A stretch of 64,000 bases of DNA from Methanococcus voltae. GTDB taxonomy: Archaea > AGJL01 > Methanococci > Methanococcales > Methanococcaceae. The position numbers and the translations under genes were made by a program. Where the stretch lies: assembly GCF_017875395.1 (NCBI RefSeq), contig NZ_JAGGMO010000002.1, positions 1 to 64,000 of the forward strand, read 5' to 3'. Positions 42,446-61,810 of this stretch are shown in pieces (within the stretch, counting starts at the first letter, position 1; every line of letters starts with the position of its first letter). Under the pieces are notes generated by a model that saw only the letters and a program-made list of their open reading frames with translations, was not told where the DNA came from and did no database searches.

Positions 42446-43117
42446 ATGGACTTACAATACTTAATGATAAAATATATTGATTTACACTTAAAAATGAGGG
42501 ATGGGACGAAACTAAGAGGTTATTTCGCCAATAAATATAAAGATTTAGAAGTATTCCACAACCATGATAATAATAACAATAATGAAAATAAGAAATTTCA
42601 TTTTAGGTATCCCACGGTTCAGTTTAAAGTAATTGATGGTAATCCATTAATTGTAGCAATAAATGAAGGTGCAAACGCACTAAAAGATGTAGTACTTTAT
42701 GAAGATACTATAAAAATAGATGATAAAAATTATTCGGTTCAAAGGGCTGAATTATCATCCAAAAGTGTAAATTTCGGAATATCTAACGAAATACACACAT
42801 ATGAGTTTAAAACGCCATGGATGTCTTTAAATCAAAATAACTATCCTGATTATTTGGCTTTAGATGATATTGATAAAGAAGAAAAGCTTAAATCTGTATT
42901 AATTGGTAATATACTTTCGATGTCCAAAAGTATAGATTATAAAGTTGAAGAAAAGATTAAAGTAAGTGCCGATTTAAAGCCTATAGATTTAAACTTTAAA
43001 GATATAAAAATGAAAGGTTTTAAAGGAACTTTTAAAACTAACTTTGATATTCCTGACTACTTAGGACTTGGTAAATCCGTTTCAAGAGGCTTAGGAACTA
43101 TTATAAAAGTTAAATAA
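42446..43117 (+). CDS. cas6: CRISPR RNA endoribonuclease Cas6
   Basis: 223 aa. Cuts the repeat RNA to give the ATTGAAAC (AUUGAAAC) 5' handle. C-terminal signature FKGTFKTNFDIPDYLGLGKSVSRGLGTI is the Gly-rich loop of Cas6. His residues suitable for catalysis occur at FHNHD and KFHFRYPTVQF in the N-terminal third, where an Asn-rich insert (HDNNNNNENKK) also lies. Last gene of the I-B operon. As the only Cas6 in the window and with one repeat type in all arrays, it probably also supplies crRNA to the Cmr complex. Confidence 0.88.
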   Translation: MDLQYLMIKYIDLHLKMRDGTKLRGYFANKYKDLEVFHNHDNNNNNENKKFHFRYPTVQFKVIDGNPLIVAINEGANALKDVVLYEDTIKIDDKNYSVQRAELSSKSVNFGISNEIHTYEFKTPWMSLNQNNYPDYLALDDIDKEEKLKSVLIGNILSMSKSIDYKVEEKIKVSADLKPIDLNFKDIKMKGFKGTFKTNFDIPDYLGLGKSVSRGLGTIIKVK

Positions 43118-43190: not shown

Positions 43191-43595
43191 TTATTCAAAC
43201 AAATAAACCATTTCTACATCTTTAAATTCAATAGTAATAGTTTTTTGTCTAAATTCTTTTTTTATAAGCTCTGCAAAATAAATAACTGCTTTTTTATAGT
43301 TTTCTAAATTAACAAATTTTGGGTTTGCACTACCTATTATTGTAAATGTATCCTCACCACCTATAGGACAACCCCATTCGGTATTATAAATACATTTAGT
43401 GGATTGTAATACACCTGATGGATAAACGTCTGTCTCTTCCATAGTTTTTAGCAATAACTTTTGTAAAACTGTTCCTATTTCTTTTGAAGGATTATTTTTA
43501 ATTACGTTTTCATTTTCATGAAAATAACCTTCATTTATTCCAAAAGTTATTGCATATTGGATAGTTTTAAATGTTTCTTGTGTAATTTTAATCAC
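43191..43595 (-). CDS. Candidate SAM-AMP/SAM lyase-like protein of the cmr operon
   Basis: Up to 134 aa (131 if translation starts at the ATT 43586, which is spaced five bases after GGTGA; the GTG at 43595 lies in the ribosome site). Last gene after cmr6, 11 bp away. Small alpha/beta protein with CIYNTEWGCPIGGEDTFTII in the middle and FRQKTITIEF near the end. Tyr70 and Glu81 are 11 residues apart, as I recall for catalytic Tyr58/Glu69 of the phage SAM lyase Svi3-3, and Q117 sits in a similar strand. SAM-AMP lyases occur with CorA-type III-B loci. The identification rests on spacing, size and context, not on a search. Confidence 0.45.
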   Translation of the reverse strand: MIKITQETFKTIQYAITFGINEGYFHENENVIKNNPSKEIGTVLQKLLLKTMEETDVYPSGVLQSTKCIYNTEWGCPIGGEDTFTIIGSANPKFVNLENYKKAVIYFAELIKKEFRQKTITIEFKDVEMVYLFE

Positions 43596-43606
43596 CTATT
43601 CTAAAT

Positions 43607-44815
43607 TCATTCTAAATTTCCATAACCCACTTTTGTTTTTGCACCAATGCCTCTATTCAATAATATCTTGTTAAATAACTCTTTTTTATTTTCGGAAGAT
43701 ATTGTTATTGATTCATTTCCTTTTAGTTCTATTTCTGAATCGTTTAATAAAAAATTAAATTTAATTTTATTATTTGAGCCTATTTTTAAGAATTTTAATG
43801 GTATCGGTTCTTTAAAAACTTCTTTGTGTGGCGTTATATAATCCTCTTCAAATAATTTGTTATTATCATTATTACTATTATCTTCAGAATATATTTCAGC
43901 ATCTAAAAATATATCTCGATTATATATTGGCACATGTTCCGTATCTGAATTTATGCCTTCAAATATGGAATCCCTTAATTTAATAGTAAATTCTACTTTT
44001 TCATTATTATTTAATTTTTTTATTTTCAGTAATTCTTTTGATTTATTGTCAAGAATTTCATACAATAATTCCAAAAGATATTTATATTTATTATTATCTT
44101 GCTTTGGTATAAGTTCGCTGTTCTTCGATATGGGTTTACCTTTAAAATCCTTCAAACTGATTCTTGGAAATGCACTCCTTAATGTACCTTTTACAGAAGC
44201 GCCTGGGACTATTGGTAAACCTGTGGTATAATCAAAGAAAAAACCCAATTTATACTCTCCTTCAGTAATACTCGTTTCGTGCATATATCCTGAACCGATA
44301 AGTAAACCAGGATATAATATGTCCAATTTAATTTCTTTAAACTTTCTATTTTTCAATTTTTTAATATCTTTTTCATTGGTTAAATTATTAGTAGATTTGT
44401 TATTTTTATAGCTATTATTCATATCATCTGTGATAGTAAGTTTTTTAATGTTTTCTTGTCTAAGATTGGCGTCTGAATACCTCTTTAATGTAGCTACTAC
44501 TTTTTTAATAGACTTATTTTTAGTATCAAGTTCTTTTTTGTATTCACTACCCCTAATAAAATTAAGTAATTTTTCATAATATTCCCTATAATATAAATAT
44601 CCTAAATTTCCATTTGACACATTATCAACTTTTTCAGCTTTTACTATTTTTTTATCGACATCCTTTTTTGAATTTGATTTTTGAGAATTTTTAAAATTAT
44701 TTGTTCTATCTTTAACATTATTTTTATTATTATTTTTATTATTAGCAGTTTTGCCCTTTTGACAAACAATTGAATTTAATTCTGCGAATGAATTTACCTT
44801 GATTCCTCTAACCAT
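43607..44815 (-). CDS. cmr6: Cmr complex subunit Cmr6
   Basis: 402 aa. A RAMP subunit near the 3' end of the crRNA. Core RAMP signature LLIGSGYMHETSITEGEYKLGFFFDYTTG, then LPIVPGASVKGTLRSAF, and the Gly-rich end RGIGAKTKVGYGNLE, which is the terminal Cmr6 motif. The first ~130 residues are an Asn/Lys-rich, helical extension not common in the family. Start ATG 44815 behind GGGTGAAGT. Lies between cmr5 and the lyase-like gene. Confidence 0.9.
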   Translation of the reverse strand: MVRGIKVNSFAELNSIVCQKGKTANNKNNNKNNVKDRTNNFKNSQKSNSKKDVDKKIVKAEKVDNVSNGNLGYLYYREYYEKLLNFIRGSEYKKELDTKNKSIKKVVATLKRYSDANLRQENIKKLTITDDMNNSYKNNKSTNNLTNEKDIKKLKNRKFKEIKLDILYPGLLIGSGYMHETSITEGEYKLGFFFDYTTGLPIVPGASVKGTLRSAFPRISLKDFKGKPISKNSELIPKQDNNKYKYLLELLYEILDNKSKELLKIKKLNNNEKVEFTIKLRDSIFEGINSDTEHVPIYNRDIFLDAEIYSEDNSNNDNNKLFEEDYITPHKEVFKEPIPLKFLKIGSNNKIKFNFLLNDSEIELKGNESITISSENKKELFNKILLNRGIGAKTKVGYGNLE

Positions 44816-44829
44816 ACTTCACCCACATA

Positions 44830-45228
44830 TTATTTCTCTCCAATTTTAAATGTCCTTAAAGCTAATTTTAAAGCAATTATTGCATCCATTATTTCTTCTT
44901 TTGCTTCTTTTTCATTATTACAGGCGTATTCTAATAAATCTTTATTATACTCATCTTCTTTTTTTCCGATGACCTCTAAAATTAAATCATTTACTATTTT
45001 TTTCTCATCTTTACCTTGATAAAACACGACTGCAGGTATTAAACCGCTTTGTATGATTGCAGGACCATAAGATGCTAAATATCCGTTTACTTCCTTTCTA
45101 ATTACTTTTAGGGTATTGTCATTATCCCCTTTTATTTCAACCCATAACCCTTTGTCTCCAACTTTATTGCATTTTTTGATAATATTTAAAGCTTCAGGAA
45201 TATAACTTTCAACTTGTTTTTTACTCAT
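44830..45228 (-). CDS. cmr5: Cmr complex small subunit Cmr5
   Basis: 132 aa, alpha-helical. Forms the inner minor filament along Cmr4. SYIPEALNIIKKC, then YLASYGPAIIQSGLIPAVVFY is the familiar Cmr5 pattern, and a helical C-terminus with ALKLALRTF follows. ATG overlaps the cmr4 stop by 8 bp. Normal length for the family. Confidence 0.9.
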   Translation of the reverse strand: MSKKQVESYIPEALNIIKKCNKVGDKGLWVEIKGDNDNTLKVIRKEVNGYLASYGPAIIQSGLIPAVVFYQGKDEKKIVNDLILEVIGKKEDEYNKDLLEYACNNEKEAKEEIMDAIIALKLALRTFKIGEK

Positions 45229-46078
45229 TATTTCCCTCTTTGCTTTTTATAATGCCAATATCGCAGAATCCATAACCTATTGTGGCATTCCCGCCGATTT
45301 GAACTAATTTTTCTTTAATGGCCTCATTAAATGTATTACTTAAACCATCTTCTTCACAGTTTGTCATAAAGTAAAATATTGATTTCCTCGGTACCACTTC
45401 TTCATACCATAAATTTTTACTTTCTCCGTTTTCAAGTTGATTTCTTGCGATTACAGGTAAATTTAAGTTACTAAATTCTTCGTTACTACATATTATTATT
45501 TTTTCATCATTTAAATTTAAGTAGTTACATAAATTGGTAATCTCTTCACTTTTAAATAAATTGGTAATATCTTCATATTTTGATATTTCTTCAAATTTTT
45601 CATTTTCTTTTGGTTCAAAATTACATTTATTTTCTAACTTTTTTTCTTTTAATTGTTTTAAACCTTCTTTTTCATCTTCTTTAATCCCTGAAATCTCTAA
45701 ATACTCAAAAAAATCACTTAAAGCTTGTGGACAAGTAACTAACGCATAAGGTCGTTTATTGCTCCTAACCGGTCTAAATAATATTTTAGCATCAAAAAAT
45801 GCCATTTTGCCTTTACCATTTTGAGTATTGTCTTGAGAAGGTGAGTTACTATCTTTACCAAATATTTTAGGTACATTATTCTTATCGCTTTCATTATCTT
45901 TAGCATTACATTCAAAGAACGCTCTTAAAGCTCCTTTTAAACTCGAAGAGTTTATTATTGGATAATTAGTAACACAATCCCTTTGAACCATATTATCAAC
46001 TACGCCATATGTAACGTCGCCACTACCTACGTGAAGATTTGTAACTGCTTTTATAAAATAAACATTTTTTGAACTCAT
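45221..46078 (-). CDS. cmr4: Cmr complex backbone nuclease Cmr4
   Basis: 285 aa. Backbone RAMP that cuts target RNA at 6-nt steps. N-terminal FIKAVTNLHVGSGDVTYGVVDNMVQRD, with Asp28 in VVDNMVQRD in the position of the catalytic Asp of characterised Cmr4 proteins, then PIINSSSLKGALRAFFE and, towards the end, QIGGNATIGYGFC. RNase activity is therefore expected to be retained. Start overlaps the cmr3 stop (ATGA). Confidence 0.93.
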   Translation of the reverse strand: MSSKNVYFIKAVTNLHVGSGDVTYGVVDNMVQRDCVTNYPIINSSSLKGALRAFFECNAKDNESDKNNVPKIFGKDSNSPSQDNTQNGKGKMAFFDAKILFRPVRSNKRPYALVTCPQALSDFFEYLEISGIKEDEKEGLKQLKEKKLENKCNFEPKENEKFEEISKYEDITNLFKSEEITNLCNYLNLNDEKIIICSNEEFSNLNLPVIARNQLENGESKNLWYEEVVPRKSIFYFMTNCEEDGLSNTFNEAIKEKLVQIGGNATIGYGFCDIGIIKSKEGNNE

Positions 46079-47280
46079 TTTTTATCCCCCTCTACCATAT
46101 ATTGATTGTATCCAATTTTTTTAAGAATTTCATATTTTTCATCATTTAGTATTTTTACAATTTCTAATTTTTTATTTTCTTTAAAATGAATGACACTTCC
46201 TTTTGTTAAGAATTTATACTGATTATCAAGTTTATCTTTATGATTAAAATTCTCTAAATCAATTGTAGCGAAATTCTTTAATTCTGCATGTATTAATAAC
46301 GAATTTTTTCTAATTTCATTATAGTCATTATTTGTAAGATACATATCTGACATTAAAGTTATTGTATTCTCTTCAAATTTTAAATTGCCAAATAATTTAA
46401 TTTCAGAATTAATTTTCTGAATGTCTAATTTAAATGATGAGTTTTCTGCACCCATATTTACAATATTTGTATATTTTTCAGCTAGTTTTTCCAAATCTTT
46501 ATTATCTTTAAGCGATAATACAAAGAAAAAGCCCCATTCTTCGTCTAATTTAAATCCATTTTTATCTTTACGTTTTAATTTATAACTTGTTTGTTTGTAG
46601 AATCCATCTTCATTATCAGTGTTATTTTTAGAAATATTAATTCCGATATTTGTATTTTCAATAAATATATCTTTATATTTTACGAAATTTTTAGATTCAT
46701 TGATATTTTTTGTTTCCACAGTGAATTTTTCATTATTTTCGCTAAATTCCAAAAATTGAAATAATATATCCGTTTTATAATCTTTAGGGTTATAGATAGT
46801 GTGATATGTATCAATTTTTTCTTTTTCTTCTTTCTGTAAATAATGTCTCTCTTCAAATTTTAAAGGCAATGCAGTTTTATTTGAGTTTTTTTGATAATTA
46901 AAAGGTATTTGCGTATAAATTTCTAATTTATTTTTATTTTCTTCATCTTTTTTATATAATAAAACCGGCGATATTGAGTTAATATGGCCAATATCTGTGT
47001 TATTGGATTCTTTTAAATCACTTAAATCTAATTTAAAATTCCCAATTGTATCAGCTATTTTTATATTTTCCTCATGATACTTGTTAAAATTAGACCTATA
47101 TTTTCCAGTGATTTTTAACAATTCTTTCCTTATCATTCCTAAAACGGTAGTTTGTTGTGGGAACTTTTCCGAATTTACAAGGTAATTTTTTAAAGAATCT
47201 TCTTTACCCTCTCCAAAAGTTTCTTTTCCCCCAAAGAAATAACTGTCAATCGGTTTTAATGTAACGAGATAGTCGGTCAT
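46075..47280 (-). CDS. cmr3: Cmr complex subunit Cmr3
   Basis: 401 aa. Cas5-group RAMP that holds the 5' handle and contacts Cas10. N-terminal YLVTLKPIDSYFFGGKETFGEGKE and PQQTTVLGMIRKELL are standard Cmr3 motifs. The central region is Asn/Lys-rich, as in neighbouring proteins. ATG directly follows the cas10 stop with GGGGGGTGA upstream. Confidence 0.9.
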   Translation of the reverse strand: MTDYLVTLKPIDSYFFGGKETFGEGKEDSLKNYLVNSEKFPQQTTVLGMIRKELLKITGKYRSNFNKYHEENIKIADTIGNFKLDLSDLKESNNTDIGHINSISPVLLYKKDEENKNKLEIYTQIPFNYQKNSNKTALPLKFEERHYLQKEEKEKIDTYHTIYNPKDYKTDILFQFLEFSENNEKFTVETKNINESKNFVKYKDIFIENTNIGINISKNNTDNEDGFYKQTSYKLKRKDKNGFKLDEEWGFFFVLSLKDNKDLEKLAEKYTNIVNMGAENSSFKLDIQKINSEIKLFGNLKFEENTITLMSDMYLTNNDYNEIRKNSLLIHAELKNFATIDLENFNHKDKLDNQYKFLTKGSVIHFKENKKLEIVKILNDEKYEILKKIGYNQYMVEGDKK

Positions 47281-49038
47281 TTATTCACCCCCCTCATTTA
47301 AGAAGCTTAATAATCTTAGGATTCTTTCAAAAGTCTGAATTGCAGTATTATTATTCGTATTATCATCTTTTGAATTATCGTAAGGATACTCGTAGTAGCA
47401 AGCTTTTAATAAATTTTTAATATTATCGATTTGTTGTTCATTTGCTTTATGAATATCTTTTTTAAAGTTATTTTTAAAGTAATTGTCAATAGAGGTGTTA
47501 AATTCTTCAAAGTCTTTATTTCCATTATTTATATGTAAATCATATAAAGAATTTAAAAGAACTTCATCTTCAGCAATTTTTATTTTAAAGGATTGTAATA
47601 TTTTTCCATTTTCATTAATTTCGTTATTATTTTTTAGAATTATGTCATTCATTAGCTTGGCAAATAAATCATACAAACTTTTATTATTTTTATTCAGAGT
47701 AATTTGAATTTCCTGCCCGCTATGTTTCAAAATTCTTAAAGCAATTGCATTTTTTTCATATTCCTTTTTATCAGCTTCTGAAGTAAGTAGCTCTTTATTT
47801 TTTTTAGCAACATAATTTAGTAAATCATTTGATTTGTTCAAAGCTTCATATAATGGGTATTTGTAATAATTAATAGTTAGTCCATACGATAATGAAGGCT
47901 TTATTTCTTTTCCATCTATTTTTATAGTTTTTCCAATTTCTTTATTAAATTTTTCATCAATATTTTCTATAAGTCCAAATACAGTTTTGAACTTATCTTT
48001 TTCATTTTCAGTTTCATTTTCGTGAATTAAAGGTACAAATGCTAAAATATCGTCGCCACCAATATATATTGGTAAACCGCCATATTCTTTAATAATATTA
48101 ACTACTTCTTTTGAAAAATTAAACAATTGTTTTGAAAATATATTATATTTCTCCAAGTTGTTATTTTCAGCGTTATCATCAGTTTCTCTTAAGAAATTTT
48201 TTAATATTTTACCGACAGAATCTCCATCTGCTCGTATAATGGCGTAATATTTATAGTGCTTTTTGAAATTTTCTTTATTTTCTGCACATTTTTTATAAAT
48301 TTCATTATATTTTCCATTATTTACTGAGTCATTAAGGTTATCAATTTTAATATCATTTGATTCAATAAAATTACCTAAAGCAATTTCTGGAAGTGATTTT
48401 ATCATTTCTTTATCGGCACTTGTTTCAAAACAATCTATCGATAAAAAACTATTTTTTATAGTTTTATTTTCAAAAAATTTAAACAATGGATTTTTGATAT
48501 TACAGGGATTGTGACTTTGATAATTTGGTTCTAATTCTAAACTATCTAAATAGTTTGATATTGTATTCATTGCTTCTTTTTTAGAGCTAAATTCTCCAAT
48601 AAACCCGTAAATTTGGAAATAATCTATTAAATTTTCTTTAAACTCTTTTAGTTTAGATATATCATATGTTTCGCTTTCTTTATCATCTAATGGCTTTATG
48701 TAGGTCTCATCTATAATTTTAGTAGCTAAATCATTTAGCACTTCTTTTTTAATTTTTTCAAAATATGATAATATCTTTTCTTTATCAAAATCATTAGAAA
48801 CTTTTACAATACATCTATCGGGGAATAATCCTGCACCGTATTTTTCAGTTTCGAATTCATTTTCAACATAGGGAGTCAATATTTCAAAGTTATTCTCTTT
48901 TAGCTTTAGTATCATCTGTTTCATAATGTATGAAAATATATAACTTCCACCCCAGGCGTGACCTGTCTTTTTAGCAGAAGCTATTGTCTGTACAATCGGA
49001 CCGATTGTAAATCCTAAATAATTGTTAGTTTCTGTCAT
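47281..49038 (-). CDS. cmr2: Cas10 (Cmr2), HD-less, with active cyclase motif
   Basis: 585 aa, much shorter than the usual ~850. It begins TETNNYLGFTIGPIVQTIASAKKTGHAWGGSYIFS, the stretch that normally follows the HD nuclease domain, so the DNase domain is absent. The first Palm has AIIRADGDSVGK (Asp271) and the second Palm has IYIGGDDILAF with GGDD at 327-330, so nucleotide-second-messenger synthesis should be possible. A Cas10 of this build, next to CorA, is the arrangement known for SAM-AMP (rather than cyclic oligoadenylate) production in Bacteroides fragilis. GGGGTGA precedes the ATG and its start overlaps the cmr1 stop. Confidence 0.93.
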   Translation of the reverse strand: MTETNNYLGFTIGPIVQTIASAKKTGHAWGGSYIFSYIMKQMILKLKENNFEILTPYVENEFETEKYGAGLFPDRCIVKVSNDFDKEKILSYFEKIKKEVLNDLATKIIDETYIKPLDDKESETYDISKLKEFKENLIDYFQIYGFIGEFSSKKEAMNTISNYLDSLELEPNYQSHNPCNIKNPLFKFFENKTIKNSFLSIDCFETSADKEMIKSLPEIALGNFIESNDIKIDNLNDSVNNGKYNEIYKKCAENKENFKKHYKYYAIIRADGDSVGKILKNFLRETDDNAENNNLEKYNIFSKQLFNFSKEVVNIIKEYGGLPIYIGGDDILAFVPLIHENETENEKDKFKTVFGLIENIDEKFNKEIGKTIKIDGKEIKPSLSYGLTINYYKYPLYEALNKSNDLLNYVAKKNKELLTSEADKKEYEKNAIALRILKHSGQEIQITLNKNNKSLYDLFAKLMNDIILKNNNEINENGKILQSFKIKIAEDEVLLNSLYDLHINNGNKDFEEFNTSIDNYFKNNFKKDIHKANEQQIDNIKNLLKACYYEYPYDNSKDDNTNNNTAIQTFERILRLLSFLNEGGE

Positions 49039-50554
49039 TATTCACCCCTATTGGCGTATAACCTAATTTTGGCATATTTTTATCTAAAAAATCTTTAATA
49101 TCAAAATCTGATGGAACATTTAGAATTTTCGAAGTATCTATTCGTACGTTTTTTGATTTATTTTCTGGATAGTATTGAATTTTGCCCCTTCGATTTCTTA
49201 CGTAATTGTTATTATGCTTTTTAGCCATTCTTTTTATAATTTGAATACTTAATTCAGTTTCTAAATTTTCGATAGATATTTTGTTTATATCATCCTCTTT
49301 AATGTCATAATCGCAGCTTTCTTTCGCAATTATATATATTGAATACTTATCTTTTTCCCTTATTATTTTATATGTAAGAGGGGATTTATAACGTGTTATA
49401 TCGCTATTTTTTGTAGGTTTTAGTAATGCTTTAAGGATATACTGAAAATTTTCTTCAGTATTATTTACTATAAAGTTATAGGTATCTCCATAACCCAACA
49501 ATGCTCTAACATTTTTGTACTTAAAATTAGGGTTAGTAGATTGATTAGTTGTGTCAGTCTCTTTTTTTAATATGTTGTATAAGTTATTTGCATTATCATA
49601 ATATAGTTCAAAGTCTTTGAAAAATTCTTTTAGTAGTTCCTGGTCTTCTCTCTTAGGTATATTTTGCAATAGTTTTTCTAAAGTTCCTTCTTTTTTTAGA
49701 TAATTCTTTATAAATCGCTTTTCCCAGTATGTTTTTTTAGTAGAATCATTAAAATGTTTCATAATTAATGAATTTTGATATTGGTTTGTTAAATTTCTTT
49801 GTCTAATGTAGTAGTTAGAATTGTCTTGTTTTGTTAATCCTGATTTTAAGTTTTTATAACCGTAAGCGATAATTTCAAAAGCTTTTTTTAAATCACTTTC
49901 TTCTGAATTTTCATAAACTGCAACTATTTTAGACCTATTATTTTCATTTAATTCAAATTTTTTTTCTTTTTCAAGTAATTTTTTATATAATTCTTTAAAA
50001 TTATTTTCAGTGTCCTTGTCATTAATTCTTTCAACAGTGAATGAACCAAAACCTTTATTTTGTCTTGTTCCAAAATTTGTTATTGCGAAAAAACTTTCAA
50101 TATTTTCTTTAATTTTCGTTAATAATTCAGTATTGAAGCTAAATATTTTTAATTCGACTTTCCCATACATTTTAAACTTATATTTGTTTTTATCCTTGGT
50201 ATTTCCAAAGAATAATTTATTAAATGGGTTACTATTAATATCAAAATTATCATTTTCTCCCGAAACTTTTATCGTAACCCGATAATCAAAGGCATTATCT
50301 TTAATTTTCTCTAAATACTCTTTTTTTTCGTTATCGTTATTACTTTCTCCTTTTTCCTTATCATATCCCATTAAAAATGTTTTATAATCTTCAACCCCCT
50401 TGTCAAAAGCATGTTTTTTTAAGAATTTATCCAACTTAGGTTTTAGTTCCGTTCCCCTAAGAGTTGCCCCACTTTGCCCGTGTTGGAAATGAATCATAGG
50501 TGTATGCTGCTTTAATGTAATAGTTAACTCGTTCGACGTCATAAATTTACCCAT
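49025..50554 (-). CDS. cmr1: Cmr1-position RAMP protein
   Basis: 509 aa from the ATG at 50554 (MGKFMTSNELTITLK), which is seven bases after GGTGG. The track-length form with TTG 50569 would begin before the ribosome site. RAMP fold: KQHTPMIHFQHGQSGATLRGTELKPKLDKFL at the start is a divergent version of the Cmr1 TPLxxG...LRxxxLKG pattern, and ITNFGTRQNKGFGSFTVE (~165-182) is the Gly-rich RAMP loop. First gene of the cmr set in the same place as cmr1, binding the crRNA 3' region. Less similar to standard Cmr1 than the other subunits are to their families. Confidence 0.75.
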   Translation of the reverse strand: MGKFMTSNELTITLKQHTPMIHFQHGQSGATLRGTELKPKLDKFLKKHAFDKGVEDYKTFLMGYDKEKGESNNDNEKKEYLEKIKDNAFDYRVTIKVSGENDNFDINSNPFNKLFFGNTKDKNKYKFKMYGKVELKIFSFNTELLTKIKENIESFFAITNFGTRQNKGFGSFTVERINDKDTENNFKELYKKLLEKEKKFELNENNRSKIVAVYENSEESDLKKAFEIIAYGYKNLKSGLTKQDNSNYYIRQRNLTNQYQNSLIMKHFNDSTKKTYWEKRFIKNYLKKEGTLEKLLQNIPKREDQELLKEFFKDFELYYDNANNLYNILKKETDTTNQSTNPNFKYKNVRALLGYGDTYNFIVNNTEENFQYILKALLKPTKNSDITRYKSPLTYKIIREKDKYSIYIIAKESCDYDIKEDDINKISIENLETELSIQIIKRMAKKHNNNYVRNRRGKIQYYPENKSKNVRIDTSKILNVPSDFDIKDFLDKNMPKLGYTPIGVNNDRN

Positions 50555-50739
50555 TGCGTAACCACCCAATTAGCATTTAATTATTTAATACTTATTAATT
50601 AGTTTAGAAAATATATAAAAATACCTATTTAATCCCGAAAAAATTGATAATATTTAAAATAAATAATTGATAAATATAAGGATAATTTAAAAATAGAACA
50701 TTAAAATTAGAAATTGAAAGTAAATGAGTATGTTAATTT

Positions 50740-52851
50740 TTAATTTTCATTAAATAATTTTCGAATTTTTTTACAGATACTTTTTTTATTAACGTTTTTG
50801 AAAGTTGACTTTAATGAGTTTATGATTGATTTTATACTTGGTATATTAAAAAGTACGAGGGAAATTATCAAAATTAATATAATATATATTATTTCCACAA
50901 TTAAATATAATATGGGGTTATCACCGACATATAATTCTACATAATTTAAAAAGTTAAAATATATCCCAGTAATTCCTGTTATTATTAATATCCCAATTGA
51001 AAGTACCGTATATTTTTTTAATTTTTTAAGTGATATTTGGCAATAGTGGTGGATAAACCATAGTATACTTAATATCACCAATGGCAAAATTATGAAATTA
51101 AATATCCACGTTAGGAATTCTGTATTATATAGCATCGTAAAGAAAATATTTGTGTAATCCATATTAAATAGTGCATTTGAGGCGCCTGAAGTAGTCGTAT
51201 CCGATACGGCACTGCCTGTAAACATTGTTAAATTCATTCCAAAGAAACCCGTAAAGAATGAAGGTATAACAAATAACGCCCCCAATATAGCTAAAAGGTT
51301 TATCTTTTCAGATGTTTTATTGGACTCTATCAGCGTAACATATTGATGTAATTCATTTAATTCATTATCCAAATCCTTAAGATTTTGCTTTATATTCATA
51401 CTATCCTGCATAATGTCATACATTTCAATGCCTTGCTCTTGTGCAGATACTTCATTAAAATACATGCAATTTATAAAGTTTATATATTGTCCATATAAAG
51501 AACGAACATTATTCATATAATTGCTGAGTCCTTTACCTTCCAATCCTTTTCCATTTATGTTATTTTTTGAATTTTGAGAAATATCCTCTGAAAATTTCAA
51601 TATCGAAGCTCTTTGGGCTAAACAAAGTTGAACCATTTCAAAATACATGGTTTTAAAGTGGTCTACTAAAAATTTATTATCGTTACAATATTCTGTTGTT
51701 AACAATGCGAAAGAATACCTTGTAATTCCATATAACGTACCGTAGTTAGACCATCGGTTATATGTGTGTTTTTTATTTAGCTCTGTAAGTAATTTTTCGT
51801 TTTGACAAGTGCAAGATTCACCCGAATCTATAAACATAAACCTATGCCAATATTCGTCACTTTCATAATTATAATCGGTATGTGTATTATATTCGTGATT
51901 ATAGTTATTATTAAAGTTATTATTATAATTCAATAAGTTTTTATTTTCTGAGTTTTTAGCATTTTTGGAATTTCCCAAATATCTTATTTTATCATTATTT
52001 CCATACCAACACATGGCAAACATACGGTCATCGATAATTGGTTCAATACAAATTGTTTCAGGATTACAGTTTCCGATAAGCTTAAAACTACTACTCAATA
52101 TATCCATAATTGGTTGGGCTAATTTTATAGGATTTTTTTGAATATTATTATTCTTATTATTTGATTCGATTATATCCTTGCACTCTTCAAAATTTTCATA
52201 AGATGATGGTTTAATTACCCAATTAGTTAAACTTATACTATCTGCTAAAAATTTATTTTTAGGAGTTTTAATACCATCTTCACCCAAAAATTGAGGATAT
52301 ATTCTCCTACCGTAGTCATTAATATTAATAATGTCTTCTTTATCTTTATATTCGTTATTTGTTAAATGAATCGACAGTATTCCAACGCCTGTATTGTATA
52401 TATTTAAATAAATTTTGTCGATATCTAATTTATAGCAGTTATTTAAAGTTTTTATCTTATAATGTACTTTATTTTCTTTTTTAAAATTGGGATTTTTATA
52501 TCGTATTACAGGATATTCTTTTTCAAAATATTTTTCCAATAATTTTTCTTCATTTTTATCATTATTTCCATTTTCTTCGCTTAAATCTTCGACACCTTTT
52601 CCAAAAATTGCTTTTCTAACATTATTATAAAAATAAACAAATTCGTTATATTTTAAAGGTTCATCAACTTTATAATCATCAAATTCCCAATTACTATCGT
52701 TTTTTAATATTTTTGTTAATTTATGAATATCTAATTTTTTATCGTAATCTCCATAACTTTTCCCATTTTTATCCGTTAAATTCCATTTAAATGGCAACAT
52801 AAAAATATGTTTACTTTTAGGTTTTAGGTTATGTTTTCCATCAGTATTCAT
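50740..52851 (-). CDS. CorA-like membrane effector of the type III-B locus
   Basis: 703 aa. A large soluble N-terminal part (~1-500) is followed by long helices (FNELHQY region) and four hydrophobic segments at about 518-537, 578-601, 614-634 and 645-667. The first ends in FFGMNL, the GMN pore motif of CorA-family channels. Two extra C-terminal spans go beyond the normal two. A CorA homologue next to an HD-less Cas10 is the known effector of SAM-AMP signalling, in which ligand binding is thought to open the membrane channel. The ATG follows GGAGTGA, and the gene lies 186 bp upstream of cmr1, on the same strand. GMNL replaces the strict GMN-(E) context of Mg transporters. Confidence 0.85.
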   Translation of the reverse strand: MNTDGKHNLKPKSKHIFMLPFKWNLTDKNGKSYGDYDKKLDIHKLTKILKNDSNWEFDDYKVDEPLKYNEFVYFYNNVRKAIFGKGVEDLSEENGNNDKNEEKLLEKYFEKEYPVIRYKNPNFKKENKVHYKIKTLNNCYKLDIDKIYLNIYNTGVGILSIHLTNNEYKDKEDIININDYGRRIYPQFLGEDGIKTPKNKFLADSISLTNWVIKPSSYENFEECKDIIESNNKNNNIQKNPIKLAQPIMDILSSSFKLIGNCNPETICIEPIIDDRMFAMCWYGNNDKIRYLGNSKNAKNSENKNLLNYNNNFNNNYNHEYNTHTDYNYESDEYWHRFMFIDSGESCTCQNEKLLTELNKKHTYNRWSNYGTLYGITRYSFALLTTEYCNDNKFLVDHFKTMYFEMVQLCLAQRASILKFSEDISQNSKNNINGKGLEGKGLSNYMNNVRSLYGQYINFINCMYFNEVSAQEQGIEMYDIMQDSMNIKQNLKDLDNELNELHQYVTLIESNKTSEKINLLAILGALFVIPSFFTGFFGMNLTMFTGSAVSDTTTSGASNALFNMDYTNIFFTMLYNTEFLTWIFNFIILPLVILSILWFIHHYCQISLKKLKKYTVLSIGILIITGITGIYFNFLNYVELYVGDNPILYLIVEIIYIILILIISLVLFNIPSIKSIINSLKSTFKNVNKKSICKKIRKLFNEN

Positions 52852-53391: not shown

Positions 53392-54977
53392 GTCGCAGTG
53401 GCAATTCCATTAAAACAAGGATTGAAACAAAAAACAGTTCAAAATATATATAATAATAAATAAGGTCGCAGTGGCAATTCCATTAAAACAAGGATTGAAA
53501 CAAGATGCTGATGTTAATATATTATTATTACTATCTACGTCGCAGTGGCAATTCCATTAAAACAAGGATTGAAACATGCAGAATTGTAATTTTTGCAGTG
53601 CTGGAAATATACTTTTGTCGCAGTGGCAATTCCATTAAAACAAGGATTGAAACTACCAATATGTTATTGTATATTGACTTATATCTTGTAATGTCGCAGT
53701 GGCAATTCCATTAAAACAAGGATTGAAACAAGAAACATCGCCTGACGAACGTAGGGCACTTACTGGTCGCAGTGGCAATTCCATTAAAACAAGGATTGAA
53801 ACTTCCATACTGAACATGAAGCTTCATCTATTTGCATCGTCGCAGTGGCAATTCCATTAAAACAAGGATTGAAACCTGCTGGTTTTGTGCAATTTGGAGT
53901 TGATTCTAAGTCTTCGTCGCAGTGGCAATTCCATTAAAACAAGGATTGAAACTTAACCTTGCTTTTGCTTTGCTCTTTGATAGCTATTTGTCGCAGTGGC
54001 AATTCCATTAAAACAAGGATTGAAACCGATTTCTTTCGGAAATTCAACAATAATTTTATTATGTCGCAGTGGCAATTCCATTAAAACAAGGATTGAAACT
54101 TAAATCTGGGGCTGGTTGCGGTGCTGGTGGTTTTGCACGTCGCAGTGGCAATTCCATTAAAACAAGGATTGAAACAAACGTACAATACGGTATTTATGGA
54201 CATGTCATGTCGCAGTGGCAATTCCATTAAAACAAGGATTGAAACTATATTATATGCGTATCACCATTAGATAATAACTCATCAGTCGCAGTGGCAATTC
54301 CATTAAAACAAGGATTGAAACTCTAGTCCTTTAAGCCAATTTACCCCTTGTATTACAGAGTCGCAGTGGCAATTCCATTAAAACAAGGATTGAAACCGGT
54401 CTAATGAAACTGATGTTGCAGTAGAAACAGTCGCAGTGGCAATTCCATTAAAACAAGGATTGAAACTCCCTTTTGACTAATTAGTCATCCGACATTATTG
54501 TGTCGCAGTGGCAATTCCATTAAAACAAGGATTGAAACGTATTGTTCACTATAGTACTTACAAATCTGAGAAGTCGCAGTGGCAATTCCATTAAAACAAG
54601 GATTGAAACCCATATTTTTGCCATAATTTTCCTTGCATTGTAAAGTCTGAGTCGCAGTGGCAATTCCATTAAAACAAGGATTGAAACATATAGAAAGATT
54701 AGTTACCAAAGTAACTGAAAACTATGTCGCAGTGGCAATTCCATTAAAACAAGGATTGAAAGCCCAACTGCCTCTGGGCGATTGGCATTTACTCAAATCG
54801 AAGATTTGATATTTTTATTTCTTATTAAATTCCCATCAAAGGATTTTTACGAGTAAAACGAGTAAAAAGGGTTTGGGATATTCCATTAAAACAAGGATTG
54901 AAAGTCATGAATATAATTATTAATTTTTTCAATTTCATTTGTCACAGTGGCAATTCCATTAAAACAAGGATTGAAAC
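53392..54977 (+). CRISPR. CRISPR array 3
   Basis: Same 37-nt repeat as arrays 1 and 2. Nineteen repeats start at 53392, 53465, 53539, 53617 and so on to 54651 and 54726. The last of these is followed by E6, then by a 3'-partial repeat (54880-54903), a 37-nt spacer and a variant terminal repeat (54941-54977, GTCACAGTGG). Leader on the left. Spacers 33-41 nt. Confidence 0.98.
54762..54878 (+). repeat. E element copy 6, inside array 3
   Basis: A shorter E variant (~117 bp) starting GCCCAACTGCCTCTGGG. It keeps the TCAAATC...GATTTGA hairpin and the TTTTTACGAG...GTAAAAAGGGTTTGG end. As with E1, the left CRISPR repeat ends at nt 36 and a partial repeat restarting near nt 13-14 follows on the right, so ~23 nt are duplicated. 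Confidence 0.8.
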
Positions 54978-57404: not shown

Positions 57405-58157
57405 GTGGAAAGTAATAATACATATGGATATGACGTGGAAAAAAGCGCACAAAATATGGATAATATATTAAGTAATATTGACTATGATTTTCAACAATGC
57501 AATGAAATACCAAAAGAGTCTGATTTAACGTATAATAATGGATTTTACGTCGATGTTGGTTCAATATTTGTAGATATCAGAGGTTCTTCAAAATTAACTG
57601 AATCACATAAGTGCCCTACTCTTTCTAAACTATATCGTGCATATATTTCAGAAGTAGTTTCTTTAATGAATAGCTATAAAAGTTGTAAACAAATTAACAT
57701 TGTAGGAGACTGTGTTTCAGGAATTTTTAAAGGTACTAGTCCAAAAAATACTTGTGAAGATATATTCCACTTATCCGGACAAATAAACTCTTTAATAAAT
57801 ATATTCAATTACAAATTATTTAAAAAAAATATTTGTGAGATTAAAGTTGGAATTGGTTTAGATTATGGTTCTACTTTAATGATAAAGGCAGGCCGTAAAG
57901 GGACTGGAGTAAACGATATAGTTTGGATGGGCGACGTAGTAAATATATCTTCTAAATTATGTGACAATGCATATAAAGAAGATAAACCTCGAGTATTAAT
58001 GACAAAAAAAGTTTATGAAACCCTACCTTGGAACGAGTGGCCAAGCTGTGGAAAACCACACTTGTATAAAATTAAAAGTTTAGAAAATAAAGAAATTTAT
58101 GGAAGAGATTATTTTAATACCTGGATGAACGAGTATTTAGAAAATATTAAAGAATAG
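57405..58157 (+). CDS. Class III nucleotide cyclase, Pycsar-like (cyclase A)
   Basis: 250 aa from GTG 57405 (GGTGA 4 nt upstream). Single soluble cyclase domain: first metal Asp in FVDIRGSSKL (Asp57), second in IVGDCVSGIF (Asp102), and transition-state Asn in DVVNISSKL (Asn180) with Lys184 where most adenylate cyclases have Arg. It converges with the membrane protein gene at 58162 and stops 4 bp from it. Standing beside a PycTM-like protein, it is likely to make a signalling cyclic mononucleotide (cUMP or cCMP) on infection. The nucleotide cannot be read from sequence alone. Confidence 0.75.
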   Translation: MESNNTYGYDVEKSAQNMDNILSNIDYDFQQCNEIPKESDLTYNNGFYVDVGSIFVDIRGSSKLTESHKCPTLSKLYRAYISEVVSLMNSYKSCKQINIVGDCVSGIFKGTSPKNTCEDIFHLSGQINSLINIFNYKLFKKNICEIKVGIGLDYGSTLMIKAGRKGTGVNDIVWMGDVVNISSKLCDNAYKEDKPRVLMTKKVYETLPWNEWPSCGKPHLYKIKSLENKEIYGRDYFNTWMNEYLENIKE

Positions 58158-58161
58158 ATAA

Positions 58162-58719
58162 TCATTTATTTAAATAATTTTTAAACCATAAAATTACGAA
58201 TAGTAAGAAAATTAAAAGTAAAATACCAATATTAAAGTAAAAATAAGTTAAAAATGCAAATAATAGCATGATACTACATATAATACAGAAAATACTGTAA
58301 TTAAATTTTTTATACTTTTCCCCAGCTATTTTTGAATTTATAACTATCTGTTGAGCAAGTTCTTTTTCATATTCAGAAGGTTCTTGATTTTCGTTATATT
58401 TTTTAAATATGGCATTTAAGTAAGTTTCAGAATTGTACTTGCAGATATGGTCATAAAATAGTAAATTATCTGTTTCAGAAATATTTTCTGACTTAGCAAT
58501 AAATGAACATAACGAAATAAATAAGCTTATAAGTAACATTAATACAACAAAGCCGAAAACATACTTAAATAAAGGGTTTTCTGAAAACGTTTCAGGGGTT
58601 AATCGCAATAATCCAAAAATTGCAACACCGTCAAATGCAACAATTGCAGCATTTTTAGCTTCTGCAAAAGAAAGCCACCTGTTAACGTTTTCAAAAATCT
58701 TTTCAAGTTTTTGTTCCAT
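58162..58719 (-). CDS. Pycsar effector-like transmembrane protein (PycTM)
   Basis: 185 aa from the ATG at 58719 (GAGGT upstream; the longer TTG form has none). The N-terminal motif FENVNRWLSFAEAKNAAIVAFDG, followed by hydrophobic segments at about 33-48 and 52-75 and two more near 142-185, agrees with the PycTM/PF18967 Pycsar effector layout. In Pycsar, a cyclic pyrimidine nucleotide triggers membrane damage and abortive infection. It lies 78 bp downstream of cyclase B on the same strand and end-to-end with cyclase A. Identification is by pattern and context, without a search. Confidence 0.65.
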   Translation of the reverse strand: MEQKLEKIFENVNRWLSFAEAKNAAIVAFDGVAIFGLLRLTPETFSENPLFKYVFGFVVLMLLISLFISLCSFIAKSENISETDNLLFYDHICKYNSETYLNAIFKKYNENQEPSEYEKELAQQIVINSKIAGEKYKKFNYSIFCIICSIMLLFAFLTYFYFNIGILLLIFLLFVILWFKNYLNK

Positions 58720-58797
58720 AATTAACCTCAATATCTTATAAAATTATATGTTACCTGATTAATACGATAAATTATATTAAATACAAAGATTTAAGAT

Positions 58798-59757
58798 TTA
58801 TTTATAAAGCTCCACCCTACGTTTAATAAGATTTAATTTATAATCATTAAGTTCATCAGATTTTTTTGACAATTTATACTCCAAATTTTTAATATCTTTT
58901 TTTAGAGAATATATTTCATCATTTTTTTTATTTAATTCAATTAATAAGTCGTAATCATTCTCTTTTTTACGACTTTTTGTATTTTTTACAGGATATTCAA
59001 ACTTATCACATAATTCATCGCAATAGTCCAAATATTGATTTTTAGTAATATATCCAGTGTAGTATTTACCGTTTTTATATCTTTTTTCTTCTTTAAAATC
59101 ATATTCAGATTTGATAGTTTCATTTAATTTAGAATATGCTTTTTCTCCAATAAATATTTCACCTTGTTTTGCTAAATCTGCGTATTTGCTGGCATAATTT
59201 GTTACATTGCCAATCCAAACGTCGCCCCATTCTCGAGTTTTACCTTTAGATTTCATTCCAACTTTTGTTATTAATGCTGGACCGTAACCTATTCCAATTC
59301 CATAAGTTAAAAATTTTTTGGAGTTTTTGGATAGCTTAGGATTTAAAGAATAATCTAAAACTGTATTCATAGATTTTGCAGCATTTAATGCTTTTTCAAC
59401 CGCAGAAATGGGATTTTCGTCAGACTCTTTATCATCTAAAAATACGCCCATTATTCGGTCTCCTAAAAATTGTCGAGTATTTCCACCACAACATCTAACA
59501 CATTTTACCGCCATTTTCATAAAACTACGATATATTTTAACTGCTTTCTTAGTTCCAACTTCGTTTACTAAACCCGTTGAATCCCTTATATCAATAAATA
59601 ATATTGCACATTTTATATTATAGGGAGTATTTGAATCATTCAAAGTATCCAAATTAGGAAAGGTAGTTTCAACAATTATTTTTTCTACAGGTTCATTTAT
59701 TATTTCATCAAATTTTTCGTTTAAGTTATTAAAGTCTGTTTTAGTAAGGATATTCAT
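58798..59757 (-). CDS. Class III nucleotide cyclase, Pycsar-like (cyclase B)
   Basis: 319 aa from the ATG at 59757, 4 nt after GGTGG. An upstream in-frame ATG (59784) has no ribosome site. Cyclase domain: LFIDIRDSTGLVNEVG holds the first metal Asp, FLGDRIMGVF the second, GNVTNYASKYAD the transition-state Asn with Lys in the usual Arg place. The C-terminal ~60 residues (NDEIYSLKKDIKNLEYKLSKK onward) form a coiled coil that may mediate dimer or partner contact. Upstream of the PycTM-like gene on the same strand. Why one locus needs two different cyclases is unclear: two nucleotides, a heterodimer, or one sensor and one synthase are possible. Confidence 0.75.
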   Translation of the reverse strand: MNILTKTDFNNLNEKFDEIINEPVEKIIVETTFPNLDTLNDSNTPYNIKCAILFIDIRDSTGLVNEVGTKKAVKIYRSFMKMAVKCVRCCGGNTRQFLGDRIMGVFLDDKESDENPISAVEKALNAAKSMNTVLDYSLNPKLSKNSKKFLTYGIGIGYGPALITKVGMKSKGKTREWGDVWIGNVTNYASKYADLAKQGEIFIGEKAYSKLNETIKSEYDFKEEKRYKNGKYYTGYITKNQYLDYCDELCDKFEYPVKNTKSRKKENDYDLLIELNKKNDEIYSLKKDIKNLEYKLSKKSDELNDYKLNLIKRRVELYK

Positions 59758-59837
59758 TTTTCCACCTGTAACATATTTTAGCATATAATATTTTTTTTAA
59801 AATTAGTTTAATATATTATATTTAATAATATTAATTT

Positions 59838-59917
59838 ATTACCTAAAAATTTACTTAAAAAGGGTTATATATTTTTAAAAATAAAATTGTTATATTATAG
59901 TTTTTAAGGTGTTTATT
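59838..59917 (+). promoter_or_regulatory. Conserved 5' region shared with the paralogue at 22879
   Basis: Near-identical to 22799-22878, with small changes just before AAGGTGTTTATT. Contains the box A-like GGTTATATATTTTT. The divergent cyclase B gene starts 80 bp upstream, so this is also the intergenic promoter region between the two genes. Confidence 0.7.
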
Positions 59918-61810
59918 TTGAGGAATATTATTAAAAAAATAATTATGATTTATAAAATTTCTAAATATATGGATATTGAAGAACTTTTAGAACATTATGA
60001 TCATATTGGTTCCCCCTATAAAATACCAATCATAATAATAGCTATTATTGGTTTAATCCTATTTTTATTATCTCTTTTTTTTATGTCAGAAAATAGTATA
60101 AACATATTAAAGGGATCTGGACTAGTTACTTTGATATTCGATAATTTTTATACAATTTTAACAATATATTTTGCAGTTATTGCAATAATTTTAACTATAA
60201 AACCACCACTTGGTTCAAATAGGAATATCTTAATAAATATGTTTGGGTCCATATATAATATTATATTAATTGTATACATTATCATAGCACTCATATTTCA
60301 GATTATTTCTTGTTTAGATAATAATTACGGCTGTGTTCTTTCTAATATGTTAATTTATGACATTATTTTTATAATATTTTTCATAGTTTTTATAATATAT
60401 TCCACCAGTAACAAAATTTTAATTCGAAAGTGTATAAAAAATCTTTCCAGAACCCTACCTCAAAAACATATCACCTTAATGGATGTATCAAAAGAAAAAT
60501 ATAACTATCAGAATGGTGCATTCAGTACTGACATATGTTCAAAAATAGAAGCGGAAGAAAAAGATATTTGCGAATTGGAGTTTAAAACGCTTTTGGGGTA
60601 TTACAATGTTAACTTTAATTCGATTGAAAAATTATTACATGAGTATAATATACAATTAGCTCATCTTTATATTCAAAAAAATAATATAAATTTAAAATAT
60701 ATAACTTCTGAAACGCTTAATGAAGAAAAAAAGGAAAAATTTATATTTGAAATTAAAGAACTCATAATGGATAAAACTAATGAAATAACGGTTTTAAAAC
60801 AACCTTATCAAGCTGAATTACATAATTACCAATCTTTATTACATGGCATAACTAAAAAAAATGACTTAGAAATATTATGTGAATATATTGTGGAAATAGT
60901 TGAAAAGGTAGATAATCCAGATAAGGACTATAATATATTAATCGATGAATTTAAAGAATATATGGTAAGATTAGGAGATAATAATGAATGTCAAGATTAT
61001 TTTTTAAATGGATTAAACTATCATATAATTCCTTATAATTATAGAAATATTGAAAAAATTATGGAATTAAGATACAAAGTGCTTATATCTATAATAAAAA
61101 ACAAAACAAATACTCCAGGATATTATGAATTATTAGGTTATACTAGTATAATTGTATACCTTGGTACAGTATATAATCATTTAATAGAGGATAAAGAAGA
61201 ATGTAAATATATTAAATATTTAATCGATCAAATATTAGAACAATATATTAAATATTTAGATGAACTAATTAAACTAAATAATTTAAATGATCGATACAAA
61301 CAAAATTTGGTATTAGATGAAATTCTATATTTTAAAGAAGGAAAATATAATTTCATAGAAGATACAACATATAATGAATTCCATACAAAATATGAGTTAG
61401 ATATTAAATCAAATAATATAATTAACACATTATTTTACCTAATATTAAAAAACATTTATTTAAATTATATTGATAAATCATGGATTAATACTATAGTTAT
61501 ATTGTGTAAAGAATATGGTACAGATGATAAAAATAGGGATAATATATCTCAGGAGTATGAATTAATGTATAAGTATAGACCAATTTTATTTTACATATTA
61601 TATTGGCAGGAAAATAAAGAACTAAAAGAAATTTTAGACTATTCAGAATTTAACGAAAAGAAAGAAGATAATTTATTCTTAAAAGACCTAACTGAATTAA
61701 CTTATAGGGATATTGAAGTTTATGGAACTCATAGATTACATTTTGAAAAATTTAAAAGAGATGCCCTTAAAATAACTGAAGAATATTATAAAAATAATGA
61801 AATGAAATAA
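59918..61810 (+). CDS. 4-TM membrane protein with large cytoplasmic domain (paralogue B)
   Basis: 630 aa from TTG 59918, the codon spaced after AAGGTG. The in-frame GTG at 59909 is within the ribosome site. Four hydrophobic segments in about residues 35-165 (PIIIIAIIGLILFLLS, VTLIFDNFYTILTIYF, SIYNIILIVYIIIALIF and IYDIIFIIFFIVFII) precede a ~450-residue charged cytoplasmic part. It ends YSEFNEKKEDNLFLKDLTEL and EEYYKNNEMK, like paralogue A. No known domain. The neighbouring cyclases and PycTM-like gene suggest a place in defence signalling, but the gene is on the opposite strand and could be independent. Confidence 0.7.
   Translation: MRNIIKKIIMIYKISKYMDIEELLEHYDHIGSPYKIPIIIIAIIGLILFLLSLFFMSENSINILKGSGLVTLIFDNFYTILTIYFAVIAIILTIKPPLGSNRNILINMFGSIYNIILIVYIIIALIFQIISCLDNNYGCVLSNMLIYDIIFIIFFIVFIIYSTSNKILIRKCIKNLSRTLPQKHITLMDVSKEKYNYQNGAFSTDICSKIEAEEKDICELEFKTLLGYYNVNFNSIEKLLHEYNIQLAHLYIQKNNINLKYITSETLNEEKKEKFIFEIKELIMDKTNEITVLKQPYQAELHNYQSLLHGITKKNDLEILCEYIVEIVEKVDNPDKDYNILIDEFKEYMVRLGDNNECQDYFLNGLNYHIIPYNYRNIEKIMELRYKVLISIIKNKTNTPGYYELLGYTSIIVYLGTVYNHLIEDKEECKYIKYLIDQILEQYIKYLDELIKLNNLNDRYKQNLVLDEILYFKEGKYNFIEDTTYNEFHTKYELDIKSNNIINTLFYLILKNIYLNYIDKSWINTIVILCKEYGTDDKNRDNISQEYELMYKYRPILFYILYWQENKELKEILDYSEFNEKKEDNLFLKDLTELTYRDIEVYGTHRLHFEKFKRDALKITEEYYKNNEMK

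What the first reader, a model, noticed from the sequence alone, without database searches (positions are those of the whole stretch)
43191..52851. Type III-B locus with the gene set of SAM-AMP signalling in an archaeon
Seen: Cas10 is 585 aa, begins after the HD domain, keeps GGDD (residues 327-330), and a 703-aa CorA-like membrane protein lies directly upstream of cmr1 on the same strand. No Csm6, Csx1 or Can1-type CARF protein is in the window. Known: in Bacteroides fragilis an HD-less Cas10 in a Cmr complex joins ATP and SAM into SAM-AMP, which acts on CorA. Inferred: this Methanococcus system uses SAM-AMP rather than cyclic oligoadenylate. If confirmed, it is a non-canonical second messenger in archaea.
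Basis: partly seen in the sequence, partly recalled or inferred. Interest (0 to 1): 0.85.

Follow-up and report, generated by a model that had tools for sequence, protein, structure and literature searches.

The report
Archaeal SAM-AMP CRISPR operon with lyase

Summary
In detail: an HD-less type III-B operon (cmr1, cas10, cmr3-6) with a CRISPR-type CorA gene upstream. In a profile alignment, Cas10 D74, E168 and D329/D330 fall on D70, E151 and D328/D329 of PDB 9lq5_B, whose numbering is that of B. fragilis Cas10. D is kept in 19 of 19 rows of this Cas10 clade; four Cmr2 proteins outside it, three beside CARF proteins, have N and K. One of these is a second III-B system in a sister species. Three CARF queries found nothing in this genome. 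SAM-AMP signalling is thus well supported by sequence; no product was measured. It is not a new idea: Chi et al. 2023 (PMC10600005) list Methanococcus vannielii and M. voltae in the SAM-AMP CorA-1 cluster. Added here: the lyase in the archaeal operon (PADLOC 'Mvol_0529-fam', described as 'DNA binding'), its presence in all three such Methanococcus loci found, one genome with both NrN and lyase, and a sister genome with both messenger types.

The parts
43191..43595 (-). SAM-AMP lyase homologue (134 aa), last gene of the operon; PADLOC family Mvol_0529-fam
   Evidence: phmmer to PDB 9gad/9gab 'SAM-AMP Lyase' E 4.6e-25; PADLOC PDLC01067 E 2.5e-53; Y58 S60 W74 C76 E81 N91 F94 Q117 T119 T121 Y131 match the 11 ligand-site residues named in PMC12255297
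43607..44815 (-). cmr6
   Evidence: TIGR01898 E 5.4e-25
44830..45228 (-). cmr5
   Evidence: TIGR01881 E 7.8e-4, below the cut-off; position in the operon
45221..46078 (-). cmr4
   Evidence: TIGR02580 E 2.4e-54
46075..47280 (-). cmr3
   Evidence: Pfam Cas_Cmr3 E 7.6e-18
47281..49038 (-). cas10/cmr2, HD-less, 585 aa; D74 and E168 (SAM-site acidic residues), GGDD 327-330; predicted SAM-AMP synthase
   Evidence: PDB 9lq5_B E 7.2e-45; residue mapping; tree; AlphaFold model best hits 9lq5-9lq8
49025..50569 (-). cmr1 (514 aa with a TTG start)
   Evidence: position between corA and cas10; no Pfam or NCBIfam hit; similar ORF, by eye, before cas10 in G018 and G020
50740..52851 (-). CRISPR-associated CorA-like membrane effector, 703 aa
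   Evidence: PADLOC CorA E 1.1e-158; Pfam CorA 470-544; relatives over most of its length beside bacterial SAM-AMP-type Cas10s
53392..54977 (+). CRISPR array next to the III-B operon: 19 copies in a row to 54762, a lone copy at 54941-54977; same 37-nt repeat, on the other strand, in the 24-copy array at 31677-33438
42446..43117 (+). Cas6 of the neighbouring I-B system; probable crRNA processor for both systems (inferred)
   Evidence: PADLOC Cas6 E 1.2e-88; no cas6 among the III-B operon genes

Best explanation
It is a type III-B CRISPR system of the SAM-AMP kind (CorA-1 cluster), lyase variant. crRNAs from the shared arrays, probably cut by the I-B Cas6 (inferred), guide the Cmr complex to foreign RNA. 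[quoted passage not shown] fragilis). SAM-AMP binds the CorA-like protein, which opens and breaks the membrane gradient (inferred from B. fragilis). The lyase encoded at the end of the operon splits SAM-AMP into MTA-AMP and homoserine lactone and so sets the level of the signal (inferred from the C. botulinum enzyme). Shown here: gene content, homology, conserved residues, co-occurrence, phylogeny. Not shown: any reaction product.
For: Lyase homology and complete ligand site. Cas10 D74 aligns with D70 of 9lq5_B pairwise and by profile, E168 with E151 by profile; that chain also has D328/D329 as printed for B. fragilis. D in 19 of 19 rows and E in 18 of 19 (Q in L049) of the SAM-AMP-type clade, against N and K in 4 of 4 Cmr2 outside it, three of them beside CARF proteins. 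The tree separates these two sets, 100/100. Cas10 of this type, CorA and lyase occur in the same 3 of 36 Methanococci genomes. No CARF effector in the genome with three queries, one Cas10 in the genome. The sister genome's second III-B system has N/K and a CARF-PDDEXK effector.
Against: No biochemistry. The plain pairwise alignment sets E168 against residue 158 of 9lq5_B, not E151; the equivalence rests on the 11-row profile. The 12 bacterial Cas10 loci were fetched with patterns drawn from Methanococcus Cas10, so they are biased to this clade, and D/E could partly reflect shared descent. Two rows of the D clade show no CorA (L017, a 4-kb contig; L023, whose genome gave no CorA match). The tree tool warned of long branches, L080 among them. 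E151 matters less than D70 in the published mutants. The CorA model is poor (pLDDT 66) and matched no solved fold at E <= 0.001.
Confidence: 0.9

Rival explanations
1. The Cas10 makes cyclic oligoadenylates (for example cA6, as was proposed for Actinomyces CorA systems), and CorA responds to these.
For: PMC11229360 (passages read) proposes cA6 for one divergent CorA clade that lacks SAM-AMP-degrading enzymes. The GGDD palm is intact.
Against: The D/E acceptor residues are those of the SAM-AMP clade; a SAM-AMP lyase is in the operon; no CARF effector was found with three queries.
Confidence: 0.05
2. The 134-aa protein is a SAM lyase against restriction-modification or a DNA-binding protein (as PADLOC labels its family), unrelated to SAM-AMP; CorA signalling is then switched off in another way.
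For: The PADLOC description reads 'DNA binding C-ter.'; it shares the catalytic Glu and Gln with phage SAM lyase (paper).
Against: The W, C and Thr (W64, C66, T112 of the C. botulinum enzyme) that the paper says SAM lyase lacks are all kept; it is inside the cmr operon in the window and G020 and on the cmr strand upstream of cmr1 in G018, and in no other of 36 genomes.
Confidence: 0.05
3. The locus is a decayed or silent remnant.
For: Patchy: 3 of 7 Methanococcus genomes. No match of two arrays in the phage collection.
Against: The ORFs are open; gene order is kept in the sister species, where Cas10, CorA and lyase are 72, 77 and 86% identical with catalytic residues kept.
Confidence: 0.05

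Closest known systems
Bacteroides fragilis type III-B SAM-AMP system (Cmr, CorA, NrN), Chi et al. 2023
   Same: HD-less Cas10 with GGDD, D70 and E151 equivalents; CorA effector
   Different: Lyase instead of NrN; lyase at the far end of the cmr operon; shares the CRISPR repeat and probably Cas6 with a I-B system
Clostridium botulinum CorA system with SAM-AMP lyase (PMC12255297; PDB 9gad, 9gab)
   Same: Lyase of the same family with all named ligand-site residues; CorA; III-B
   Different: There the lyase gene is next to corA; here it follows cmr6, with all six cmr genes between it and corA, in an archaeon
Methanococcus vannielii and M. voltae loci listed in Chi et al. 2023
   Different: Their text gives NrN for M. 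vannielii; a lyase is not mentioned for it in the passages and section read. G018, whose contig length is that of M. vannielii as I recall it, has both
CARF-type III-B system in sister genome G020 (L088)
   Same: HD-less Cmr2 of 585 aa in the same genus
   Different: N/K in place of D/E and a CARF4-PDDEXK effector; G020's only CorA and lyase matches lie at its other III-B locus

Membership tests
SAM-AMP type III-B (CorA-1 cluster) | Cas10 with intact GGDD and acidic acceptor residues equal to D70 and E151 of B. fragilis | tested here: met
   D74, E168, D329, D330 by profile alignment; pairwise alignment confirms D74 but not E168
SAM-AMP type III-B (CorA-1 cluster) | Cas10 groups with CorA-linked Cas10s | tested here: met
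   100/100 branch in a 23-row tree; the tool warns of long branches
SAM-AMP type III-B (CorA-1 cluster) | CRISPR-type CorA gene in the locus | tested here: met
SAM-AMP type III-B (CorA-1 cluster) | SAM-AMP-degrading enzyme (NrN, DEDD or lyase) in the locus | tested here: met
   Lyase; the NrN of G018 has no match in this genome
SAM-AMP type III-B (CorA-1 cluster) | Makes SAM-AMP on target RNA binding; CorA binds it | not testable with these tools
   needs biochemistry
SAM-AMP lyase (PII-like) | Catalytic Glu and Gln (E71, Q108) and W64, C66, T112 of the SAM-AMP type | tested here: met
   E81, Q117, W74, C76, T121
[quoted passage not shown]
   needs biochemistry
Cyclic-oligoadenylate type III-B | CARF or other cOA effector in the locus or genome | tested here: not met
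   TIGR01897, PF09651 and CARF4-PDDEXK searches negative in this genome. PF09651 rang in none of the 14 control genomes and over its cut-off in none of 36, so that one is a weak test; other effector families were not searched genome-wide
Cyclic-oligoadenylate type III-B | Asn at the acceptor position (N300 of P. furiosus) | tested here: not met
   Asp in the window; Asn in L052, L053, L054, L080

The most novel reading that the evidence does not exclude
Methanococcus species use a lyase as the standard SAM-AMP eraser. One (G018) has a second, chemically different eraser (NrN) in the same locus, and another (G020) keeps two III-B systems with different messengers, SAM-AMP/CorA/lyase and cOA/CARF nuclease, 22 kb apart in one cell. 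That would give archaea two parallel, insulated nucleotide alarm circuits, and a natural test of why SAM-AMP must be degraded for immunity.
Probability: 0.45. Interest if true: 0.55.

Novelty: new member of a known kind. Interest (0 to 1): 0.4.

Why it matters
In the parts of the SAM-AMP papers read here the SAM-AMP proteins tested come from bacteria, plus one phage enzyme; no archaeal protein is described as tested. A complete archaeal operon with synthase, effector and eraser makes the euryarchaeal prediction directly testable, and Methanococcus species can be grown and, as I recall, genetically modified. The coexistence of NrN and lyase in one locus, and of two messenger types in one genome, bears on the open puzzle (stated in PMC12255297) of why SAM-AMP must be degraded for immunity to work. 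The PADLOC label of the lyase family could be corrected.

Tried and rejected
Virus-encoded relatives of the lyase: none found in viral contigs (3 and 47 stretches matched patterns, none confirmed) or among the phage records. These were narrow, close-relative searches and do not speak against the published phage lyase.

Spacer targets: no match of the two large arrays in the phage collection. The self-match check was faulty (its mask hid 5282-54977 of the window); one search repeated it with 49 spacers against the rest of the window and L013, L014, L088 and L089, and found two 15-base matches and one of 18 bases (spacer at 32319, to 50656-50673 between corA and cmr1). The 18-base match covers about half of an A+T-rich spacer; I take it for chance but did not test that.

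CorA fold: model of low confidence. Foldseek's best hits were CorA transporters at E 7.6e-3 (query TM 0.13 in the first row), none at E <= 0.001; by sequence the window protein alone had no PDB hit at E <= 1, and the family profile hit CorA transporters mainly over positions 408-500 of 517.

Other Methanococci Cas10s (L055-L074, L078, L079; 22 rows) are longer (721-835 aa in the fetched pieces), and their N-terminal columns do not align reliably with this family. They were left out of the D/E counts. L051 lacks the N-terminal columns and was dropped from the residue count and the tree; L081 was also not used.

The cited 2019 survey of type III accessory genes (PMC6546367) is not held, and no held paper contains 'Mvol_0529', so whether that family was ever equated with the lyase in print is open beyond those searches. 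Held papers containing both 'SAM-AMP' and 'Methanococcus': one, Chi et al. 2023. Supplementary files and figures of the papers were not seen.
Full report
WHAT IS THERE. The operon on the minus strand reads corA (50740-52851), cmr1, cas10, cmr3, cmr4, cmr5, cmr6 and a 134-aa gene (43191-43595) that starts 11 bp after cmr6. Cas10 is HD-less, with GGDD at 327-330. Convergent with it lies a I-B system: Cas8b, Cas7, Cas5, Cas3 and Cas6 on the plus strand, Cas1 and Cas4 on the minus strand. Arrays with one and the same repeat lie at 31677-33438 (24 copies) and 53392-54762 (19 copies), with further copies at 5282-5836 (8), 6070-6183 (2) and 54941. The III-B operon has no cas6 of its own, so the I-B Cas6 probably serves both (inference).

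THE MISSED GENE. The 134-aa protein matches the chains named SAM-AMP lyase in PDB 9gad (E 4.6e-25) and 9gab. The crystal paper, PMC12255297 (Results section read), names Y48, S50, W64, C66, E71, N81, F84, Q108, T110, T112 and Y122 at the ligand site. 9gab has Q where 9gad has E, which I take for the paper's E71Q variant and use to anchor the numbering; carried through the alignment, these are Y58, S60, W74, C76, E81, N91, F94, Q117, T119, T121 and Y131 in the window. All 11 are kept here and in both Methanococcus relatives. W64, C66 and T112 are, by that paper, not conserved in SAM lyase, so the protein is of the SAM-AMP type rather than the SAM type. PADLOC knows the family as 'Mvol_0529-fam', 'DNA binding C-ter.' (E 2.5e-53); the name looks like a M. 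voltae locus tag (recalled).

THE RESIDUE TEST. Chi et al. 2023 (PMC10600005, passages and main section read) report that D70 and E151 of B. fragilis Cas10 stand where the cOA-making P. furiosus Cas10 has N300 and R436, that E151R had a limited effect, that D70N was significantly compromised, and that the double mutant made no detectable SAM-AMP. The best PDB match of the window Cas10 is 9lq5_B (E 7.2e-45, residues 6-574). Counting its residues gives D70, E151, D328 and D329, exactly the B. fragilis numbers, so I take it to be that protein (inference; the tool gave no organism). Through the family profile these align with window D74, E168, D329 and D330. The plain pairwise alignment agrees for D74 but sets E168 against residue 158; I trust the profile, because there the motif YLDxLELQ falls on YLNIIENQ without a gap. 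In a wider alignment D is kept in 19 of 19 rows of the SAM-AMP-type clade and E in 18 of 19 (Q in L049), while L052, L053 and L054 have N and K, and so does the second Cas10 of G020 (L080). Of these four, L053 and L054 carry a CARF protein (PF09651), the second locus of G020 carries a CARF4-PDDEXK protein (E 5.7e-124), and L052 is cut by its contig end. A 23-row tree puts the four apart from the 19 with 100/100 support, the window among the 19; the tool warns that L080 and some others are long branches. Caveats: the bacterial loci were fetched with patterns from Methanococcus Cas10, two of the 19 rows show no CorA (L017, L023), and the 22 other Methanococci Cas10s could not be aligned in this part and are not counted.

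STRUCTURE. The AlphaFold model of Cas10 (pLDDT 80, pTM 0.85) matches 9lq5 to 9lq8 best (query TM 0.70-0.76), ahead of P. furiosus Cmr2 and others. CorA was modelled poorly (pLDDT 66); its best structure hits are CorA transporters, but none at E <= 0.001.

CO-OCCURRENCE. In 36 Methanococci genomes this type of Cas10, CorA and lyase each occur in 3, and in the same 3: G000 (own), G020 and G018, while the Cas10 palm family PF22335 occurs in 23 of 36. G020 has the same gene order. In G018 the lyase lies upstream of cmr1 on the cmr strand, and corA with an NrN-type DHH gene lies on the other strand (DHH_CorA E 3.4e-133; no match to this NrN in the other 6 genus genomes, own included). G018's single contig of 1,720,048 bp is the length I recall for M. 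vannielii, for which Chi et al. report NrN. So one locus appears to hold both erasers. Of the 12 bacterial loci, 10 have CorA in the fetched DNA, cut short in L016; one, Clostridium sp. DSM 8431, has a lyase; three (L024, L025, L027) have an NrN-type match, fused to CorA in L024 and L027. A search of 395 Bacteroidia genomes gave 8 with a match; of the 8 stretches fetched from these, 4 have CorA: two with NrN (L047, L048) and two with a DEDD-type nuclease beside it (L049, below Pfam's cut-off, and L050). No CARF effector was found in this genome with TIGR01897, PF09651 or the G020 CARF nuclease; TIGR01897 rang in 11 of 36 genomes and in M. jannaschii as control, PF09651 passed its cut-off in none of 36 and rang in no control.

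HOW IT WORKS. The most likely chain: target RNA binding, SAM-AMP synthesis by Cas10, CorA opening, loss of the membrane gradient, and lyase clearance to MTA-AMP and homoserine lactone. Gene content, homology, residues, phylogeny and co-occurrence are shown here; each reaction is inferred from the bacterial proteins.

WHAT IS NEW. The central claim was already predicted in print: Chi et al. list M. vannielii (Fig. 1b legend) and M. voltae WP_209731901 (Extended Data Fig. 6 legend) in the SAM-AMP cluster and name euryarchaea. The library search for SAM-AMP papers (29 listed) showed no archaeal biochemistry in titles or abstract starts; most of those papers were not opened. New here, as far as searched: the lyase in the archaeal operon, the double eraser in G018, and the coexistence of both messenger types in G020, whose two Cas10 genes are about 22 kb apart.

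Noticed in passing
57405-59784: Pycsar-type genes beside the CRISPR region: a PycTM effector (58162-58731, Pfam PycTM E 9.4e-8), a PycC cyclase (58798-59784, PADLOC E 9.3e-38) and a second PycC-like cyclase (57405-58157, PADLOC E 7.4e-78), in an archaeon.
   Followed up: partly
L088:6410-14182: Sister genome G020 carries a second HD-less III-B system with N/K acceptor residues and a CARF4-PDDEXK effector, about 22 kb from its SAM-AMP system.
   Followed up: partly
L013:7691-8050 and L013:16184-16936: One Methanococcus locus (G018) carries both a SAM-AMP lyase homologue and an NrN-type DHH phosphodiesterase.
   Followed up: partly
L023:4765-16466: A Bacteroidetes III-B operon with a D/E-type Cas10 has no CorA (no match in its genome). 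A SMODS nucleotidyltransferase gene is wedged between cmr6 and the next ORF (cas6-like by eye), and an S_4TM effector and two EAD11-pentapeptide genes lie upstream of cmr1: possibly a CBASS-CRISPR hybrid or another SAM-AMP effector.
   Followed up: partly
L016:6534-8720: In Halonatronum saccharophilum the CorA gene next to a SAM-AMP-type cas10 is cut short (204-aa ORF); the ORFs just upstream look by eye like a transposase. The genome holds further CorA matches on another contig.
   Followed up: no
8225-31436: A stretch that by eye looks like a provirus (portal- and terminase-like ORFs; two tail-protein-like ORFs of 277 aa that resemble each other at 11513 and 25298), interrupted by the restriction-modification genes and ending at the CRISPR array at 31677. 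Not tested with phage family searches.
   Followed up: no
22849-24768 and 59909-61810: Two large ORFs (639 and 633 aa), membrane proteins by eye and alike by eye, lie on either side of the CRISPR genes; no PADLOC hit for either, no Pfam hit for the second.
   Followed up: partly
5282-6183: Further copies of the same CRISPR repeat: 8 at 5282-5836 and 2 at 6070-6183.
   Followed up: no
50656-50673: An 18-base exact match, between corA and cmr1, to part of the spacer that begins at 32319; the spacer is A+T-rich and the match may be chance.
   Followed up: no
17718-22753: A type III restriction-modification pair (MTase_III E 4.1e-200, REase_III E 3.4e-250).
   Followed up: no
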